Source of the DNA: Lasiosphaeris hirsuta
Lineage: Eukaryota; Ascomycota; Sordariomycetes; Sordariales; Lasiosphaeriaceae
DNA length: 64,000 nucleotides
Reading direction: 5' to 3'
Assembly (NCBI GenBank): GCA_030549175.1
Contig: JAUKUA010000007.1
Location: 2,604,001 to 2,668,000 of the forward strand
How positions within the stretch are numbered: position 1 is the stretch's first letter; each line of letters starts with the position of its first letter. This document shows positions 42,162 to 57,846 of the stretch, piece after piece. The position numbers were made by a program, and so were the translations under genes. The notes beneath the pieces were generated by a model. That model had not been told where the DNA came from, searched no databases, and saw only the letters and a program-made list of their open reading frames with translations.

Positions 42162-43245
42162 CTACTGCGCAAGATCGTGATGATGCTCGTGGCAGAGGTG
42201 GTCCGGGTGTGCCTCACAGGGAGGGTAGACCCAATCCGCCATGCTGCGAGCGCCAGCAGTGACTGAGTTAGACGCCGTAGTCCTCGTCTTCGGAGTCGTC
42301 GGCATAACTCTGCACGGCTGCGCGGGAAATCCAGTATTAGTAGGTGCGTAATCATAAGAGTAGTGGGCGCTCGCGACCGGTGTCGAGGACACGGCGTGGA
42401 GACTGGAAATCCCGCCGGCGAAGGACGACGAGAGGAAGCCGCTGGCACCCGTGGGTTCCGGCTTGCAGACGACCCATGGGCCCTCGTCGTCATCGTCGTC
42501 GGCGATCTCGACAATCTCGGTGACCATGGCCCCGCCACGAGTCTTGAGCGCCGCTGGGGTGGAATGTTGCGCTAGCGAACCATCCAGAAGGCAGTCGGAA
42601 TCGAACGAAGTCCAACTCTCGGCCGCGAGCATAGCCTCGAACGACGAGAGTGATGTGGTTCCGCCGTCTCCCGCTTCCTCGGATGGCTTCTCGCTCTTGA
42701 TGGGGTTCTCACTTTTCTCACTTTTCTCACTTTTCTCACTTTTGACAGCAGACTCTTTCTTGATGGCCGCCTTGGGCTCCTCCTTCACTTTCTCGGCCTT
42801 GACGGGCTCATCATCGTCGACACCAGTCGTAATCTTGTCCACCTTGCGCTTTTTGGCGGGGGTTGTCTTGGTTGCAGCCTTGCTGGAGCCCGAAGCAGCG
42901 CCCGAAGAAGCAGCGCCCTTCGAGTCCTGATCCAGGGGCGGATACTGCTTCTGGAGACGCTCAAAGCGCTTGGCACTGGACAAGGAATAAGCACTTGTCC
43001 ACAAGCGACTAGAGAGGGAGGATGGGAACTTACGCGGCAGCCTTGGACACAATGCCGAGCTCGGTGGCAACGGCCTGAAAGTCAACCTGTAAGACGGGCG
43101 ACGTGAGCGTTTGGTTTCATCATCGCAAGAAAGGGATCCAAAAACAGAGGGGGCCTACTTTGCCTGCGTTCGCGTTTCTAATGCAGGTCATCAAGAACCG
43201 GACGTGGGCCTCCGAGACCGAATCAGGTGTGCTGCTGCCGCCCAT
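42162..43245 (-). CDS. Myb-like DNA-binding protein (fungal Myb_DNA-bind_8 type)
   Basis: Three exons, 43245-43159, 43086-43034 and 42975-42162, give 317 residues. The N-terminal Myb/SANT-like domain is split across all three: 'SEAHVRFLMTCIRNANAGKV', 'DFQAVATELGIVSKAAAAKR' and FERLQKQ. This is the common ascomycete pattern of hydrophobic helix, V/I-D-W/F, then a recognition helix ending in KR. The rest is Lys/Glu/Ser-rich, with a possible nuclear signal (TPAKKRKVDK), four tandem SEK repeats coded by a 9-nt repeat at 42706-42741, and a His-rich C-terminus. Probably nuclear; target genes unknown. The start codon lies only 10 nt beyond the stop codon of the upstream gene on the same strand. Confidence 0.85.
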
Positions 43246-46363: not shown

Positions 46364-47017
46364 TCAGACGGCAGGGCCGACGTTCTCATCATCATCCTGC
46401 TCCTCCTTCTTAACAGGCCTGCTTGGAAGTAAAGAGGTATGGTTAGACGTGGGCCGCACAGAGAAGGATGGGGGATGCAGCCCCAATGGTGTACTTACTG
46501 CTCGTCGCCGGACTCTTCTTTCTTAACACCCTTGCCCTTTCTGGCCTTCTCAGTCTTGACGCGCTTGCTGGGTGACTCCATGTCAGGCTCCGAGTCGTCC
46601 TGGGGGTCGCTGAGCTTGGCGGCAGCAGCCTTTTTAGCAGAGGCGGTCTTCTTTCCCGAAGCGGGAGCAGGGCGTTTCTTGGCGCTCTTCGGGGTCGAGG
46701 AACCCTCTCCGCCGTCGGACTTGGCAGCCGGGCCACTACCCTCCTTGCGGCGCAGCTTCTGCAAGTGCTGTCTGTAGAGAGAAGAGATGTTAGCAATCCG
46801 AATGTTTTCCAAATGCAAAGCGAAATTGTGCTATGCTGGCTGTGTGTCCAAAAATTTACGTAATAGCCTTCACGGTGCAAGTGTAGCCAAAGCTATGCAT
46901 GCGCGCCATGACGCTGCGAAGCTGTTCTTGGCTGGGTTGGAACTCTTGGGTCATGGCTGTGAGGAGATCATGGTCCGCCTTGTGGTCCCATGTCATCCGA
47001 GTATCCGTGCTTGCCAT
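46364..47017 (-). CDS. Myb/SANT-like module A with the Lys-rich tail exons (complete gene)
   Basis: Three exons, 47017-46860, 46771-46499 and 46418-46364, give 161 residues. Exon 1 (158 nt, phase-2 donor AC|GTAAAT) encodes a Myb-like helical domain: 'MTWDHKADHDLLTAMTQEF', 'QEQLRSVMARMHSFGYTCTV' and KAIT. Exon 2 opens 'QHLQKLRRKEGSG', completing the third helix in the manner of fungal Myb/AT-hook proteins, then becomes Lys/Ala/Ser-rich with basic patches (SAKKRPAPASGKK, SPSKRVKTEKARK). Exon 3 encodes an acidic tail. Probably a nuclear DNA- or chromatin-binding protein. It is the only member of the seven-module array with downstream exons. Unspliced RNA would stop at the donor (ACG TAA). Confidence 0.8.
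46499..46771 (-). other. Candidate shared (constant) tail exon of the Myb-like array
   Basis: Begins after a TCTCTACAG acceptor with a single nucleotide A followed by CAG CAC TTG CAG. This phase fits every one of the seven upstream phase-2 donors, and each join gives a plausible x-QHLQKLRR sequence. Sharing is inferred. Confidence 0.5.
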
Positions 47018-47231
47018 TGTTGCTGGTCGAGGATGGCGAGGTCTGAAAGAGGTGTTGTGGTGGAAGAGACTTCTTCGTTGCTGGGTGAAATGTTTGGGAA
47101 GAGCGAGGAAGGGGAAGGAAGAGGGCGGTGGGAAACTGGGAAATGGAAATGGGAAATGGGAAACGGAAAAGCAGCGAGGGGCAGAATTTTCAGATTTTTT
47201 CAAAATGGGAAGGAGTGGGAAGGTTGCATAC

Positions 47232-47383
47232 AAGGCGGCACTCGCTGTGTACAAGTATCCTTTCTCCTCAACCCGTTCTAAGATTTTCTCCCACTCGGAC
47301 GGAGCGGGTGGCGCCTCCAGCACGATTGCCTGGAGGAGCGCTAGATGAGCGCCATGGTCCCAGACTGTAGCTTTGGCTGCCAT
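47232..47383 (-). CDS. Myb/SANT-like module B (first exon only)
   Basis: ATG-initiated 152-nt exon, 50 codons plus 2 nt, ending TT|GTATGC. Encodes 'KATVWDHGAHLALLQAIVLE', 'PSEWEKILERVEEKGYLYTA' and SAA. No tail exon fits in the 214 nt before module A. Joining to the tail at 46771 gives ...SAALQHLQKLRR. Homologous in layout to module A but with few identical residues. Confidence 0.6.
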
Positions 47384-47527
47384 TTTTGCGAGGTTGTGGT
47401 GGTTGCTGTTGCGACGAGAGCAAACTTTTGCGAGAGGAAAAAGACAATGGACTGGGACAAGAGGCTGGGTGAGGTTTGTGCAAGCTCAAAAAGAAATCTC
47501 GGGAGATGGATTGGGGGGCCCAAGAGG

Positions 47528-47566
47528 AGGACCTGCGAGAGGGACCTGCGAGAGGGACCTGCGAGA
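47528..47566 (+). repeat. 13-nt tandem repeat, 3 copies, between modules C and B
   Basis: Unit GGGACCTGCGAGA repeated three times in the spacer downstream of the module C donor. Confidence 0.85.
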
Positions 47567-47590
47567 GGACCCACAAAGTGCGAGACGTAC

Positions 47591-47742
47591 TGAAGTGCCG
47601 ACTCGCTGAATGTGTATCCTTGAGCCTGCAAAGTGGCCATAACCGCTCGCCAGTCATCTGGCCTCGGCGCCCAGTGCTTGACCAGAGCCAAGAGGATGTC
47701 CTCATGGACCTCTGAGTCCCACTTCTGGAGAATGCGTGGCAT
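47591..47742 (-). CDS. Myb/SANT-like module C (first exon only)
   Basis: 152-nt exon from ATG to donor CA|GTACGT, phase 2. Encodes 'LQKWDSEVHEDILLALVKHW', 'PDDWRAVMATLQAQGYTFSE' and SAL. The W-D...LL and GYTF positions align with the AT-hook gene exon at 51651-51500. Joining to the tail at 46771 gives ...SALQQHLQKLRR. No own tail in the 207 nt to module B. Confidence 0.65.
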
Positions 47743-47903
47743 GGCGATTTGCGGGACTTGGGTTACTTGTGTGACTTGCTGTTTTCGGGATTTGCGCGCT
47801 GGCGTGCTTGCGAGGAGCGGGAAAGAAGGAAAAAAAAACTTGAAGTAGGTGAAACAGTTTGGGTTATGGTGGGGAGTGCTGAGGAAGGAGGCGGGGACCA
47901 TAC

Positions 47904-48064
47904 AGAAGAGCATTATCGCTGAATGTGTGGCCCTTTTCACGCAAACCAGCGATCATTTGGTAGCAGTCCATGGCATTTGGCCGAAAATGGTTGTTCATAG
48001 CTTTGAGAACATCGAGCAGAACCTGGTCGTCCCAGGTGGCTGGCTTGGATGACTTGGGCGCCAT
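47904..48064 (-). CDS. Myb/SANT-like module D (first exon only)
   Basis: 161-nt exon, ATG to donor CT|GTATGG, phase 2. Encodes 'ATWDDQVLLDVLKAMNNHF', 'MDCYQMIAGLREKGHTFSDN' and AL. Possible join: ...DNALLQHLQKLRR. The 161 nt to module C hold no acceptor-plus-tail. Confidence 0.62.
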
Positions 48065-48115
48065 TTTGTGGAGTGCGTAAATGGTGGTGGTGGTGAAGGT
48101 GTGAAGGTGATGCTG

Positions 48116-48168
48116 AGGAAAGCGAAGAAGATGAGGAGGATGAGGAAGATGAGGAAGATGGGAGGGAA
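48116..48168 (+). repeat. Purine-rich GAGGAAGAT-type repeat before module D
   Basis: Degenerate 9-nt units (GATGAGGAA) on the plus strand; read in the coding direction this is a C/T-rich tract just upstream of the module D ATG, as in fungal core promoters. Confidence 0.7.
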
Positions 48169-48252
48169 AGTAGGCATTGGGAAGGGAGGGCACTGGCCGC
48201 TTGGCCCACGCTCTTTCCCCTCGTCCTCTCCAAACTGCGTGTTATCACGAAC

Positions 48253-48392
48253 CTGATGGCATTCCAGTTGGTCTGGTGGCCGCGCTCGTTCATGAAGCGA
48301 ACAATGTCCTCCTGCTGCTCCTTGGTGAGAGGTAGTAGCACGGTGAGGGTGGCCTCAAAGAGGTCCTCGCGGATGTCTTCCCACTTCACCAT
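48253..48392 (-). CDS. Myb/SANT-like module E (first exon only)
   Basis: 140-nt exon, the shortest, ATG to AG|GTTCGT, phase 2; the donor is weaker than the others. Encodes 'MVKWEDIREDLFEATLTVLL', 'KEQQEDIVRFMNERGHQTNW' and NAI. Possible join: ...NWNAIRQHLQKLRR. Confidence 0.58.
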
Positions 48393-48729
48393 TATGATGA
48401 TTATGTATGGGTTTATTCGGCGTGGTAGTGGTGTTGAGAGATGTGCAAAATTGAAGGCGTGAGCAGCGATTGCTGTGAAGTGTGTGCTTTGTGTGTTTTG
48501 TGAAGCTGCGAAGAAGTGGGCAAAGCGAGGAAATTGTTCCTCCTTCAGGAAAACGACCGGGCGCTATGACCTCCACAGCGGCCAGAACAACGAGTAACGA
48601 GAAATCAGAACAGAACTGGGGAGCAGCCCGACCGCTCTCACTTAAGGTGCCGGATTGAGTCGAGGGGCGAGGGCATCCAGATGTTTGTGGTCCGTGCGTA
48701 GGAAAAGGGGTAGACACCAAGGGACGTAC

Positions 48730-48884
48730 AGAAACTGCCGCCAGTTGTAGTCTTTGTGGCCCATATCATGCATGTTTTGCAGGAACCTGTCCTTGAACTT
48801 TGGGAGGTGTGGCTTGGCAGCTTCGAAAAGACACACTACCATGTCATACTCTCGCTCACGCATCTCTTCGAGAGTGGGTGACAT
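48730..48884 (-). CDS. Myb/SANT-like module F (first exon only)
   Basis: 155-nt exon, ATG to CT|GTACGT, phase 2. Encodes 'LEEMREREYDMVVCLFEAAK', 'KDRFLQNMHDMGHKDYNWRQ' and F. The usual first Trp is replaced by Tyr, the most diverged module. Preceded by a long C/T-rich tract in the coding direction. Possible join: ...NWRQFLQHLQKLRR. Confidence 0.55.
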
Positions 48885-48934
48885 CTCGAGTTCAAGTTGT
48901 GGTGTAGTAGACGAGTTGACGAAGGTGGTTGTGG

Positions 48935-49015
48935 GAAGAGAGAGAACAAAAAGCAGAAAGCAGAAAAGCAGAAAGAAGAAAGGCAGAAAGGCAGAAAGGC
49001 AAAAAGGCAGAGAGA
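48935..49015 (+). repeat. Purine-rich (GCAGAAAG)n-like tract upstream of module F
   Basis: Degenerate 8-nt repeats; in the coding direction it is an AG-free pyrimidine tract 50-130 nt before the module F ATG. Confidence 0.75.
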
Positions 49016-49082
49016 ACGGGGGACGGGCTCGGGTACGAGACAACATGCGGCAAAGCAGCGTAGAATAGCAAACTGGACTTAC

Positions 49083-49255
49083 CTGATGGCATCCCAAGTG
49101 TAGGTGAATCCTCTGTCCTTCATGGACTGGACGATTTCATCCTTCGTGAGATTGACAGTCTCCATCGAGATCGAATCGATCATGGCTAACAACAGGGCTT
49201 CATGTGTCTCGGATGACCATCTGGCCAACACACGAGCGGGACCAGGGCTAGCCAT
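49083..49255 (-). CDS. Myb/SANT-like module G (first exon only)
   Basis: 173-nt exon, the longest and most 5' of the array, ATG to AG|GTAAGT (consensus donor), phase 2. Encodes 'VLARWSSETHEALLLAMIDS', 'KDEIVQSMKDRGFTYTWDAI'. Unspliced RNA stops at the donor (AGG TAA). Possible join: ...TWDAIRQHLQKLRR. Confidence 0.65.
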
Positions 49256-50543: not shown

Positions 50544-51651
50544 TCACTCAGGCACATACGGATTCCCAGACGACGGGTCGTTGTGAGCGGCGAGGGCATT
50601 CATCACTGCCTCGTCATCCAAGGACGGGTTCTCATCCAGCCTGGGCCGTTTTGCGGCGTGTTCATCGTCGGCATCAGCATCCTCTAGACTGGGGTCGACA
50701 GCGAGGTCGTCGGCCACCGGCGTGTCTGCTTGAGTGGAGAGCGATGATGCGATAGGAGGTGGCGGCTGGGATCCGCTCTGGCCAGTCTCAATACCCTGAG
50801 TGTCGGAAAGACCCGAGATATCAGAGCCACCGGCCACGCCAGAGAGATCCGGTATGCCGGGGACACCGACGAGGCTAGGATCTCCGGGAGTGCCGCCCTC
50901 TACGGGGGCAACGGCAGGTTGCTTCCTCGGCCGCCCGCGACCGGGACCAGGCCGGCGGGTGATGGGGTTCTGGGTGGGATCAGCCTTCCGCGGATTGTTC
51001 TCATTGGAGACCCCGTTGGCTTCGGCTTTGTTCTGGGCTCGACGGAGCCCCTGAAAGTGTTGGCTGGAACAAGTTAGTGCGAGATACGAGGAGGCACATG
51101 TGACACGAGAAGCAGGAAGAAGGGTCAATTGGGCATTGTGAGCTTATAGCAGCCCCTATGCATGATGTGTGTGGTATATATATGGCCATGCATGCGTGCA
51201 TCTGTCTGTCTGTATGCGCGGGTGGGGACCCGCAGGCATGCGACGGACATCTGCTGCTTCGACATTGATTCTCGATATCGTAATCCGTCGCCCCCGTTTG
51301 GAACGGAACTGGATTGGCGGGCGGGGCGGCAGGCAGAGCAACTTGTTCTTGATTGAGAGCGATTTACACGCTCGAGGAGCGGCAGAGATATAAATACACG
51401 CAAGACTTGAAGGAAAAGAAAGGCGGGCAGCTACGAGAATATTGGAGGGGAGATATCGACATGATGATGGGGATGAGGATGAGATGGAAGCGCACTCACC
51501 GACATCCCTCATTGGTGAAGCCGTAGCCCAGGGTGCGCATGTGGTTGCCTATCGTGGTCCATTCGGAGCCGCTGATGACGCCAATGTTCTTGACCGACAG
51601 GATGGTAAAGAACAGGTCCTTGTCGGCCCGGTCATTCCAGTTCTTGTTCAT
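50544..51651 (-). CDS. Myb/SANT-like AT-hook protein (complete two-exon paralogue of the array)
   Basis: Two exons, 51651-51500 (152 nt) and 51063-50544, give 223 residues. Exon 1 encodes 'NKNWNDRADKDLFFTILSVK', 'SEWTTIGNHMRTLGYGFTNE' and GC; it ends in phase 2 (CG|GTGAGT). Exon 2 opens 'RQHFQGLRRAQNKAEANG', completing the Myb-like domain, then carries an AT-hook, 'RRPGPGRGRPRKQP', that binds the minor groove of A/T DNA. The remainder is Pro/Gly/Asp-rich, with a basic patch AAKRPRL. Its exon-1 length, phase-2 junction and QHxQxLRR start are the same as in modules A-G, so it shows the ancestral layout. An ATG at 51744 would extend the N-terminus by 31 residues. Nuclear regulator by inference. 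Confidence 0.85.
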
Positions 51652-54235: not shown

Positions 54236-55330
54236 ATGTCGGCCAACGATAATGCCATGACCAGATTCCTGTTCGCCATCCTCCAACAAAAGTGTTTGAA
54301 GGATGTAAGTCCAGGAATACCAAACCCCGCTGCTGCCTGGTCAGGTTGGTATCCGGACTGACAGGCGGTAACCCACCAGATCGACTGGAACAAGGTCGCC
54401 CACGACCCGATCCTCGCGCAAGAAATCACCAACGGCCATGCGGCCCGCATGCGGTACTCGCGCTTCAAGGCCGCGATGCTAGGGCTCGAGCCGCAGCGGC
54501 GAAACCGCACAAACCCGAACCGGAGCCGCGTCTCCAAGAAGAAGAAGGACGACGGAAAGTCCGCCAGCAGCGGCAGCGGCACCAAACCGAAAGACAGAGC
54601 TGGAGACGACGGCAGCGACTTCAAACCCGAAGGCGGCGTCAAACCCGAGCCCCGCGATACCGAGCCCGCCTCCTCTCCCCAATCCCGGGATATCGGCTTC
54701 CACGACATGGTCATGACACCCAAGATCAAGGAGGAGCGCTTGTTCATGCCCTCGGCCTCGCCCTCGGAACACAGCTACACCCAGCAGCTGCACCTCGGCG
54801 GCAGCCCGGCACCGAACAGCCTATCAAACCTCCAGCACCATATCCAGCAGCAGCAGCAGCAGCAGCAGCAGTCGCGCCTGCACATGCGGCTACTCACGCC
54901 CTGCAGCGACTCGGACGTGCTGGCGGGCTTCGGTGGCGGCGCGGCGGCCAGCCCGTCGACCAGCGACATGTTGCAGCACGACGCCGCTTCGTTTGATTTC
55001 TCGCCGGTGCCGAGGCTGTCGCCGGGGCCAGTGGTCGGCGCGGACCACGACGGTGCGGGCCACCTGTCGTCGTGGCACCACCACCACCACGCTGCTGCGC
55101 ACCCGCAGAATGGGTATTCGGCCGGGTTCGGGATGGGGATGCACGGCGGGTACGGCGCCGGGCTGGATGGGGCATGTTATGGGGCGTTTTGCGACCATGG
55201 CGATGATCATCACCAGCATCAGCACCAGCAGGCCCTGGAGGATGAGCTCGGCGTGCATGTGGCCTTGCTGGAGGAGGGGAGTCAGGTCATGGTCAAGCAC
55301 GAGGACTGGGATACGCAGTCGTACCATTAG
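54236..55330 (+). CDS. Myb-like DNA-binding protein with poly-Gln and His-rich tail
   Basis: Two exons, 54236-54304 and 54380-55330, phase 0, give 339 residues. The N-terminal domain reads 'MTRFLFAILQQKCLKDIDWN' then 'KVAHDPILAQEITNGHAARM', RYSRFKAAMLG: the fungal Myb pattern of hydrophobic helix, IDW..VA, and a recognition helix ending in a basic RYSRFK motif. A basic segment 'RNRTNPNRSRVSKKKKDDGK' follows, likely nuclear import. The rest is low-complexity: nine Gln (CAG repeat 54845-54871), 'SSWHHHHHAAAHPQ' and 'DHHQHQHQQ'. Such Gln/His-rich tails are common in fungal transcription regulators. The leader is a (CT)n tract. Target unknown. Confidence 0.85.
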
Positions 55331-56810: not shown

Positions 56811-57846
56811 ATGCCTTCCAAGGCCACTGTCGCCGATGGCGGCGTTGACGCCCAGGGCAGAAAGCAGCCCACTGCGGCCGAGGCTTTCTTGTTCTACACT
56901 ATCATCAAGAACATGAAGGAGAAGCCCGCCATTGACTGGGACGGCGTTGCGAGAGACAACAATTTCAAGAATGCCGATACCGCCAAGGTAAGTCCAGTGG
57001 TGGCGCACTTTCCATACGTGGCCCAGGTGGCACTAACCCTCTTCCCTCAAGGTTCGCTTCGGCCAGGTCAGACGCAAGCTTGGTGTTGATATGATGAACA
57101 ATGGCGACGGCGGCTCTTCCGCTGGTAATACTCCAACCAAGGCTGATTTCGTTGGCGACTCTGCCACTGCCGGCTCGGCCGCCACTGGCGCGGGTGTCAA
57201 GAAGCGAGCACCGGCGAAGCCTAGAGCCACCAAACCGAAGGCTGCTCCGAAGGATAACATTACCCCTAAGAAGCCGTCTGCTAGAGGCAAAAAGATTGCT
57301 GCAGCCGCCGAGTCTGACAAGTTCAACACTCCTCCCGTTGTTGTCGAGGACGACTCGTCTGATGAGATGAAGGCTGCTACCAACGATGATTTTCTTACTC
57401 CCATCAAAGGCGAGGTTTCGGCCGACGAGAAGCCTATCGAGGAGGGAAAGGTGATCAAGAATGAGAAGGAGGACATGCCTTTGACCAATTTGAAGTTTGC
57501 TCCCAAACCCCCCGCCAACTCCGTGTACGCCCGGAACGACCACTCGGCTAATCTGGGTGGTCTCCCCACACACCCTTCCCGGAACATGGGCCAGCAGTAC
57601 GATGGCTTCAACGTGGCTCAACACGACGGTCAGGATGACCAGCATGGCCTTCCCAACGTCAATCTCTTCGGCAACCCGTTCAGCTTCGCAAATGACCCGG
57701 GCAACATCGCCGGCTTCCCCGTGGGCTCTAGCCTCTTCACTGACGGTGAGCTCTTCGCTGGTGATGACAGCTTGATTGGTGGGCAGCACTCTCTCTTCGG
57801 CGGTTCGGCTCCTTGGAACGCCAATAACGGCAACGGCGATATTTGA
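56811..57846 (+). CDS. Myb-like DNA-binding protein (fungal Myb_DNA-bind_8 type)
   Basis: Two exons, 56811-56987 and 57052-57846, phase 0, give 323 residues. Domain at 20-75: 'AAEAFLFYTIIKNMKEKPAI', 'DWDGVARDNNFKNADTAKVR' and FGQVRRKLGV, with the usual IDWDGVA core and a basic recognition helix. The middle is Lys/Ala/Pro-rich (KKRAPAKPRATKPKAAPK, histone H1-like), suggesting chromatin binding; the C-terminus is Asn/Gly/Phe-rich and acidic, ending in GNGDI. It resembles the neighbouring gene at 54236 in domain but not in tail. Probably nuclear; function unknown. Confidence 0.87.

What the first reader, a model, noticed from the sequence alone, without database searches (positions are those of the whole stretch)
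46364..49255. Seven tandem ATG-initiated Myb-like exons with identical splice phase and one shared tail
On the minus strand, exons at 49255-49083, 48884-48730, 48392-48253, 48064-47904, 47742-47591, 47383-47232 and 47017-46860 each start with ATG, encode one 46-57-residue Myb/SANT-like unit, and end at a GT donor in phase 2. Only the last is followed by a tail exon (46771, QHLQKLRR plus Lys-rich region). Each of the other six donors would join that tail in frame, giving ...AIR/ALL/ALQ-QHLQKLRR, exactly as the complete paralogue at 51651-50544 does (GCR-QHFQGLRR). Spacers of 160-345 nt are too short for separate tails. All seven are open although their sequences are highly diverged, which argues against dead duplicates. 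The layout resembles a variable-first-exon / constant-tail locus (as in clustered protocadherins), here for DNA-binding specificity. I know of no such fungal locus.
Basis: partly seen in the sequence, partly recalled or inferred. Interest (0 to 1): 0.88.

Follow-up and report, generated by a model that had tools for sequence, protein, structure and literature searches.

The report
Fungal seven-head, one-tail transcription-factor locus
A fungal gene carries seven interchangeable start pieces, each most of a probable DNA-binding domain, that appear to be joined one at a time to a single shared end piece, an arrangement best known from vertebrate protocadherin and UGT1 genes and here kept in a fixed order in related fungi.

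Summary
On the minus strand, seven ATG-initiated exons (A–G) each stop at a phase-2 GT donor, and all read in frame into one tail exon (46771-46499), then a last exon (46418-46364). The organism is Lasiosphaeris hirsuta; the only protein of it that my searches returned is G+tail. The tail is single-copy.

In 29 of 29 database proteins with two or more heads (of 100) the order is A→G; 83 of 83 heads but 0 of 31 linkers of such models are conserved. Heads of types A, C, E, F and G, and by weaker assignment B and D, occur joined directly to the homologous tail in some species. In the Podospora anserina group four different heads sit on a 97-98% identical tail, one from a source of unspliced ORFs, so probably cDNA.

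Predicted structures show a three-helix, Myb/trihelix-like domain whose third helix is cut by the junction. Best reading: a multiple-variable-first-exon locus making up to seven isoforms with different heads and one basic tail. Separate promoters, transcription and DNA targets are unproven here. My searches found no report of such a fungal locus.

The parts
49083..49255 (-). Variable first exon A (57 codons + 2 nt; donor GTAAGT)
   Evidence: A-type head joined to tail in P0036 (Thermocarpiscus; 32 bits) and, by tree only, P0083 (Sporothrix thermara)
48730..48884 (-). Variable first exon B (51 codons + 2 nt; donor GTACGT); the most diverged head
   Evidence: B-type head joined to tail in P0062 (B by tree; phmmer A 14 / B 12 bits)
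48253..48392 (-). Variable first exon C (46 codons + 2 nt; donor GTTCGT)
   Evidence: C-type head joined to tail in P0053, P0063, P0059
47904..48064 (-). Variable first exon D (53 codons + 2 nt; donor GTATGG)
   Evidence: D orthologue in P0043 (41/51 identical). Head-tail join only in P0071, whose head matches the second head of P0050 (46/51); that head is only weakly D (16 bits) and the tree puts it beside F
47591..47742 (-). Variable first exon E (50 codons + 2 nt; donor GTACGT)
   Evidence: E-type head joined to tail in P0056; P0054 and P0055 score E and D almost equally
47232..47383 (-). Variable first exon F (50 codons + 2 nt; donor GTATGC)
   Evidence: F-type head joined to tail in P0049, P0060, P0066, P0068
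46860..47017 (-). Variable first exon G (52 codons + 2 nt; donor GTAAAT)
   Evidence: G+tail is protein P0001 of this species, identical
46772..46859 (-). Intron G-tail, with branch-point-like GCTAAC (46794) and acceptor CAG at 46772; the acceptor that every head would use
   Evidence: the only strict branch+acceptor combination between 49400 and the tail start
46499..46771 (-). Constant tail exon 2: rest of helix 3 (QHLQKLRRKEG) plus Lys-rich region; single copy in the genome
46364..46418 (-). Constant tail exon 3 to the stop codon
   Evidence: matches P0001
47018..49082 (-). Stretch holding the six inter-head spacers (198, 337, 188, 161, 207, 214 nt), which would have to carry the promoters and 5' leaders of B-G
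   Evidence: Pyrimidine-rich, ATG-poor leader-like sequence; no strict branch+acceptor
51500..51651 (-). Paralogue (complete single gene), exon 1: same type of head, same phase-2 donor
50544..51063 (-). Paralogue exon 2: its own tail (QHFQGLRR...)

Best explanation
The region is one gene complex with seven mutually exclusive, ATG-containing first exons (A-G) and one constant tail (two exons). Each first exon encodes helices 1 and 2 and the first turn of helix 3 of a Myb/trihelix-like domain; the tail supplies the rest of helix 3 and a disordered Lys-rich, probably nuclear and DNA-contacting, C-terminus. Transcription starts in the leader before the chosen head; because the other heads have donors but no good acceptor of their own, the chosen head's donor pairs with the tail acceptor, and downstream heads are lost inside the intron (88 nt for G up to 2,311 nt for A). 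The result is up to seven 155-166-aa proteins with different DNA-binding heads and the same tail, chosen by promoter use. SHOWN here: anatomy, frame compatibility, single tail, ordered conservation of heads, and direct joins of several different heads to the same tail in relatives. INFERRED: one promoter per head, that all seven joins occur in L. hirsuta, and that the heads differ in DNA specificity.
For: Phase and frame. Single tail in genome. Collinear head arrays in 29 of 29 multi-head models: (best phmmer match; includes weak or duplicate assignments such as P0059 'CC' and P0072 'AA', and congeneric species). Head-tail joins. Podospora group: tails of P0050, P0060, P0062, P0071 97-98% identical; heads 16-26% in the four of six comparisons that aligned most of the head. 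P0060 and P0071 come from species annotated by a pipeline that used RNA-seq transcript models (PMC10936905, passages seen). Neurospora, Pseudoneurospora, Copromyces: C,E-tail and G-tail models on 89-97% identical tails (Sordaria brevicollis 70-75%). Junction inside helix 3. Heads conserved 83 of 83, linkers of 15 or more residues 0 of 31, P0046 left out as congeneric with P0044. Codon bias highest in frame 0 for all seven heads. YAG triplets are somewhat scarce in the spacers (21 against 27.5; 11 of 500 shuffles as low).
Against: No RNA reads were available. Most head-tail joins are gene models, which a predictor could make by itself because every donor is in frame. The B and D joins rest on weak head assignments. 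Absence of strict acceptors in the spacers is not statistically notable (0 against 1.25; 141 of 500 shuffles as low) and a looser pattern finds 5 sites, about as expected. No word is shared by all seven leaders; the best 8-mer, CACCACAA, is in 4 of 7. ATG scarcity in the leaders (2 against 17 at random) is largely explained by dinucleotide content (294 of 1000 dinucleotide shuffles as low; 19 of 1000 mononucleotide shuffles). Some spacer frames score as well in codon bias as heads A and F. Introns of 0.5-2.3 kb are long for a fungus (recalled). In P. anserina, a transcript survey reports little variation in transcript size (PMC9801653, passages). The one protein of this species found uses only G.
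Confidence: 0.77

Rival explanations
1. Same head-to-tail splicing, but one upstream promoter (before A) and alternative splicing decide the head: a leader exon, or competition between donors in one long pre-mRNA, rather than a promoter per head. Long transcripts from A could also silence downstream heads.
For: A shared long pre-mRNA is unavoidable for A; loose branch+acceptor patterns exist in spacers B-C, C-D and E-F. No word shared by all seven leaders.
Against: No strict branch+acceptor before any head ATG. The leaders are on average pyrimidine-rich and poor in ATG. The proximal donor G would be expected to win in a shared pre-mRNA (inference).
Confidence: 0.13
2. One long protein with several Myb-like heads in series, as the fused database models (e.g. 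P0038, 674 aa) suggest.
For: 29 of 100 proteins found carry two or more heads; of the 15 new proteins all do, 14 of them named gene models and one (P0052) an ORF of an unnamed contig.
Against: Linkers are not conserved (0 of 31) and different models drop different heads; each head alone lacks most of helix 3; 31 of 100 proteins are G+tail with no other head (counted).
Confidence: 0.04
3. Only G+tail is a gene; A-F are decaying tandem duplicates.
For: The one L. hirsuta protein found is G+tail; B is highly diverged (9/35 identical residues to the P0062 head).
Against: A-F have relatives in the same order across genera, no stops, and donors in one phase; between L. hirsuta and Lasiosphaeria hispida heads A, C, D are 58, 67 and 80% identical, G 92%, the tail 67%.
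Confidence: 0.04
4. Each head makes its own short protein from an unspliced or separately ended transcript.
For: Unspliced A and G stop right at the donor (AIR*, AIT*).
Against: Such proteins lack the conserved QHLQKLRR part of helix 3; unspliced B, C, D, E, F run on past the donor; direct joins of several heads to the tail exist in relatives.
Confidence: 0.02

Closest known systems
[quoted passage not shown]
   Different: Fungal; encodes a small probable DNA-binding domain; the junction cuts through helix 3; heads are far more diverged; about 2.9 kb in all; promoter per exon not shown; no motif common to all leaders found.
Fungal alternative transcription start use (e.g. Fusarium ZEB2, reviewed in PMC9604717, passages seen)
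   Same: Different N-termini of a DNA-binding regulator from one gene.
   Different: The cases seen truncate or shift one N-terminus; none of the passages seen describes an array of alternative heads.
Plant trihelix GT-1, Zeste and Myb/SANT/GARP DNA-binding domains
   Different: No Pfam Myb family reaches its cut-off in 18 proteins scanned; identity under 20% in these alignments; the P0001 model shows no clear neighbour.
Adjacent single gene 51651-50544 and the protein P0035 (Cadophora)
   Same: Same head + QHFQ.LRR / QHFQKIRK junction.
   Different: One head with its own tail; perhaps the single-gene form from which the array grew (inference).

Membership tests
Multiple-variable-first-exon cluster | Tandem array of homologous variable exons of similar length and identical reading frame | tested here: met
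   Seven exons of 140-173 nt, all phase 2; homologous heads
Multiple-variable-first-exon cluster | One downstream constant exon set | tested here: met
   Single tail, exons 46771-46499 and 46418-46364; single copy in genome
Multiple-variable-first-exon cluster | Each variable exon is spliced to the constant exons | tested here: inconclusive
   In this species only a G+tail protein was found. In relatives A, C, E, F, G and, by weaker assignment, B and D heads are joined to the tail, mostly gene models; P0062 probably cDNA
Multiple-variable-first-exon cluster | A distinct promoter before each variable exon | not testable with these tools
   Only proxies: pyrimidine-rich leaders (mean C+T 0.647 against 0.499, 0 of 5000 resamplings, though A, C, E alone are ordinary)
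Multiple-variable-first-exon cluster | Conserved motif upstream of each variable exon (UGT1) | tested here: inconclusive
   No 6-, 7- or 8-mer in all seven leaders. CACCAC is in 6 of 7 (shuffles reach 7) and CACCACAA in 4 of 7 (200 mononucleotide shuffles reach at most 3)
Myb/SANT DNA-binding domain | Pfam Myb-family match above gathering score | tested here: not met
   18 proteins scanned; best Myb_DNA-bind_4 16.9 bits in P0035 and 14.2 bits in A, cut-off 27
Myb/SANT DNA-binding domain | Three-helix fold with recognition helix 3 | tested here: inconclusive
Clr5 domain family (name given by UniRef to P0050 and P0082) | Pfam Clr5 match | tested here: not met
   P0050 scanned at E up to 1: no Clr5 match; P0082 not scanned

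The most novel reading that the evidence does not exclude
An ancient fungal promoter-choice switchboard: one locus in Sordariomycetes encodes a repertoire of seven or more DNA-reading heads that share, by splicing in the middle of the recognition helix, one tail; choosing a promoter chooses which genomic sites the same effector tail is sent to, a protocadherin-like selector for transcription factors that evolved independently of animals.
Probability: 0.5. Interest if true: 0.93.

Novelty: new variant of a known kind. Interest (0 to 1): 0.87.

Why it matters
Arrays of variable first exons with one constant tail are known from vertebrates, where they diversify cell-surface receptors and detoxifying enzymes. 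A conserved fungal example for a DNA-binding domain would show that this architecture evolved independently, give a compact (2.9 kb) model in genetically tractable moulds (Neurospora, Podospora), and explain why gene models at this locus are inconsistent between species. It also makes promoter choice in a small-intron genome directly testable.

Tried and rejected
Rejected readings: polyprotein with tandem heads (unconserved linkers); dead duplicates (ordered conservation); own short proteins (missing helix 3). Second loci: weak own-genome matches on contigs C1, C7, C8; I read 601 bases each of two of them (L004, L009), saw no comparable array by eye, and did not analyse L005 or L006. Rfam and tRNA scans of the window found nothing.

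Weak or negative tests, kept: acceptor depletion in spacers not significant; ATG scarcity in leaders mostly compositional; no word common to all leaders; openness and codon bias alone are not decisive; no clear structural match for the P0001 model, and no Foldseek match at E 0.001 for either model.

Uncertain head classes: P0062 scores A 14 / B 12 by phmmer and is called B from the tree and its 26/50 identity to the second head of P0038, a head that phmmer itself called C. The 'D' heads of P0050 (16 bits) and P0071 (unclassified) sit beside F in the tree. P0054/P0055 score E and D almost equally. P0035 and P0064, nominally E, group with the paralogue; P0072, P0078, P0079 are weak; the E piece of P0040 is a fragment (10 bits). 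In one search, 26 of 100 proteins have a tail with no classified head abutting (retained introns, partial ORFs, and P0071 and P0083, which I assigned by identity or tree) and 11 have no tail motif. In the tree I kept one in three G heads, left out P0001 and heads under 38 residues, and read no support values. One search scored only the 7,991 candidates sharing most words. dN/dS could not be run: I reached no DNA of other fungi.

Literature: ten searches; in the listings shown none is about an array of variable first exons in a fungus. Passages were seen in PMC9801653, PMC10936905, PMC7608984, PMC9604717 and PMC1885805; no paper was read whole. Subscription journals and preprints are mostly not covered.
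Full report
What is there. The window lies on contig C12 (4,543,247 bases) of a 44.4-Mb, 14-contig genome. A database protein identical to exons G+tail, P0001, is named Lasiosphaeris hirsuta B0H67DRAFT_649487 and sits on a contig of exactly that length, so the organism is the fungus L. hirsuta (Sordariales, recalled). Joined to the tail (46771-46499, then 46418-46364 after a small second intron) all seven give one open protein to the same stop. The tail acceptor has a branch-site-like GCTAAC 22 nt upstream. The neighbouring paralogue 51651-50544 has one head and its own tail with the same phase-2 junction.

Is the tail really shared? In the whole genome the tail DNA matches once and the tail protein once below E 0.1. 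The F head, the paralogue head and a Cadophora relative find only heads of this array and the paralogue below E 0.01; the best head match elsewhere is E 0.048 and its DNA showed nothing comparable by eye. The other heads were not searched in the genome singly.

Conservation in other species. Three protein searches (the last scored a capped candidate list) returned 100 distinct proteins. I classified their heads by best phmmer match to the L. hirsuta heads and by a tree of 110 heads without support values. Of the 100, 29 carry two or more heads, and in 29 of 29 the order is A to G; examples are Podospora conica B-C-D-E-F-G-tail (B 16 and E 10 bits only), Diplogelasinospora A-(B)-C-C-E-F-G-tail, Thermothelomyces A-C-E-F, Lasiosphaeria hispida A-C-D. 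Some of the 29 are congeneric or weakly classified, so they are not 29 independent tests. These long models are probably prediction artefacts: leaving out P0046, which is congeneric with P0044, 83 of 83 heads but 0 of 31 linkers (15 residues or longer) have a match at E 0.001 in another model, and different models drop different heads. They are useful because they show linkage and order. In Thermothelomyces hinnuleus the A-C-E-F model (gene 2207) and the G+tail model (gene 2206) have consecutive ids and contigs of the same length. The tree mostly groups heads by class; exceptions are the 'D' heads of the Podospora group (beside F), Neurospora-type E heads (beside D), and P0035, P0064, P0072, P0078.

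Direct head-tail joins. In 46 of 100 proteins a G head abuts the tail; 31 of these have no other head. Other heads do so too: A in Thermocarpiscus (P0036); C in Staphylotrichum (P0053), Magnaporthiopsis (P0063), Ophiostoma (P0059); E in Lasiosphaeria miniovina (P0056), E or D in Pseudoneurospora and N. crassa (P0054, P0055); F in Naviculisporaceae PSN 640, Podospora bellae-mahoneyi, Gaeumannomyces and Corynascus sepedonium (P0049, P0060, P0066, P0068). Less surely classified: a probable A in Sporothrix thermara (P0083, by tree), a probable D in Podospora pseudopauciseta (P0071), a probable B in P0062. P0062 comes from the source marked 'lgn' (I take this to be assembled sequencing runs; recalled). 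Other proteins of that source that cross this junction (P0030, P0076, P0081, P0084) keep the intron in frame, so ORFs there are not spliced, and P0062, in which head and tail are seamless, is most simply a cDNA contig. A processed gene copy is not excluded.

The Podospora anserina group is the best single case, whatever the class names: P. comata P0050 shows four heads (C, D-like, F, G) and the tail in one model; P0060 has the F head, P0071 the D-like head and P0062 yet another head directly on the same tail. The four tails are 97-98% identical; the four of six head comparisons that aligned most of the head gave 16-26%. The F head of P0060 is 58/58 and the head of P0071 46/51 identical to those in P0050. 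The annotation of P. bellae-mahoneyi and P. pseudopauciseta used RNA-seq transcript models as evidence (PMC10936905, passages; that these locus tags belong to that annotation is my inference from the species). A transcript survey of P. anserina itself reports alternative starts or ends in over a third of genes but little variation in transcript size (PMC9801653, passages).

How it would work. A transcript begun before head X meets X's donor; the later heads have donors but no strict branch+acceptor before them, so the best partner is the tail acceptor and the later heads are lost in the intron. Introns would be 88 (G), 460 (F), 819 (E), 1,132 (D), 1,481 (C), 1,958 (B) and 2,311 nt (A), from the coordinates. 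The lack of strict acceptors is no more than chance allows (141 of 500 shuffles as low). The leaders look like 5' leaders: pyrimidine-rich on average (0.647 against 0.499 in random 100-mers, 0 of 5000 resamplings, though A, C and E alone are ordinary) and nearly free of ATG (2 in 1,120 nt against 17 at random, but 294 of 1000 dinucleotide shuffles are as low). CACCACAA occurs in 4 of 7 leaders (at most 3 in 200 mononucleotide shuffles). These are hints, not proof, of a promoter per head. If G's donor outcompetes the others in long pre-mRNAs, transcription from A could instead silence G; only cDNA can tell.

Compared with what is known. [quoted passage not shown] The first two are met, the third is met for several heads in relatives and untested in this species, the fourth is not testable here. 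My literature searches listed no fungal example; a review of alternative start sites in pathogenic fungi describes truncated or shifted N-termini and, in the passages seen, no first-exon arrays (PMC9604717).

Verdict. Observation confirmed; interpretation supported by other species. I rate it a new variant of a known kind: a known architecture, in a new kingdom and for a new kind of protein.

Noticed in passing
window 54362-55330 (+): A Myb_DNA-bind_8 protein (29.4 bits, cut-off 27) lies about 5 kb from the array on the other strand; the neighbourhood may hold several Myb-like genes (C-terminal exons near 42162-43154 and 57037-57846 look similar by eye but give no Myb match in Pfam).
   Followed up: partly
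window 48949-49014 and 47515-47566: Short tandem repeats inside two spacers: an 8-nt AAGGCAGA-type run in A-B and a 13-nt GGGACCTGCGAGA run in E-F, possible recent growth of the leaders.
   Followed up: no
window 49081-49096 and 48251-48266: The exon ends and donors of A and C share a 16-nt stretch at 94% although the heads are otherwise diverged.
   Followed up: no
database proteins P0038-P0051: Public gene models at this locus are fused or inconsistent in many species; they stitch unconserved sequence between heads and would mislead domain counts.
   Followed up: yes
P0059, P0061, P0063, P0066, P0072, P0078, P0083: Heads joined to a homologous tail also occur in Ophiostoma, Grosmannia, Magnaporthiopsis, Gaeumannomyces, a Xylariaceae species and Sporothrix, outside Sordariales (orders recalled), so the arrangement may be older than that order.
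   Followed up: partly
P0038 residues 141-276: Diplogelasinospora has two C-type heads and no head classified D, so heads seem to be gained and lost while order is kept.
   Followed up: no
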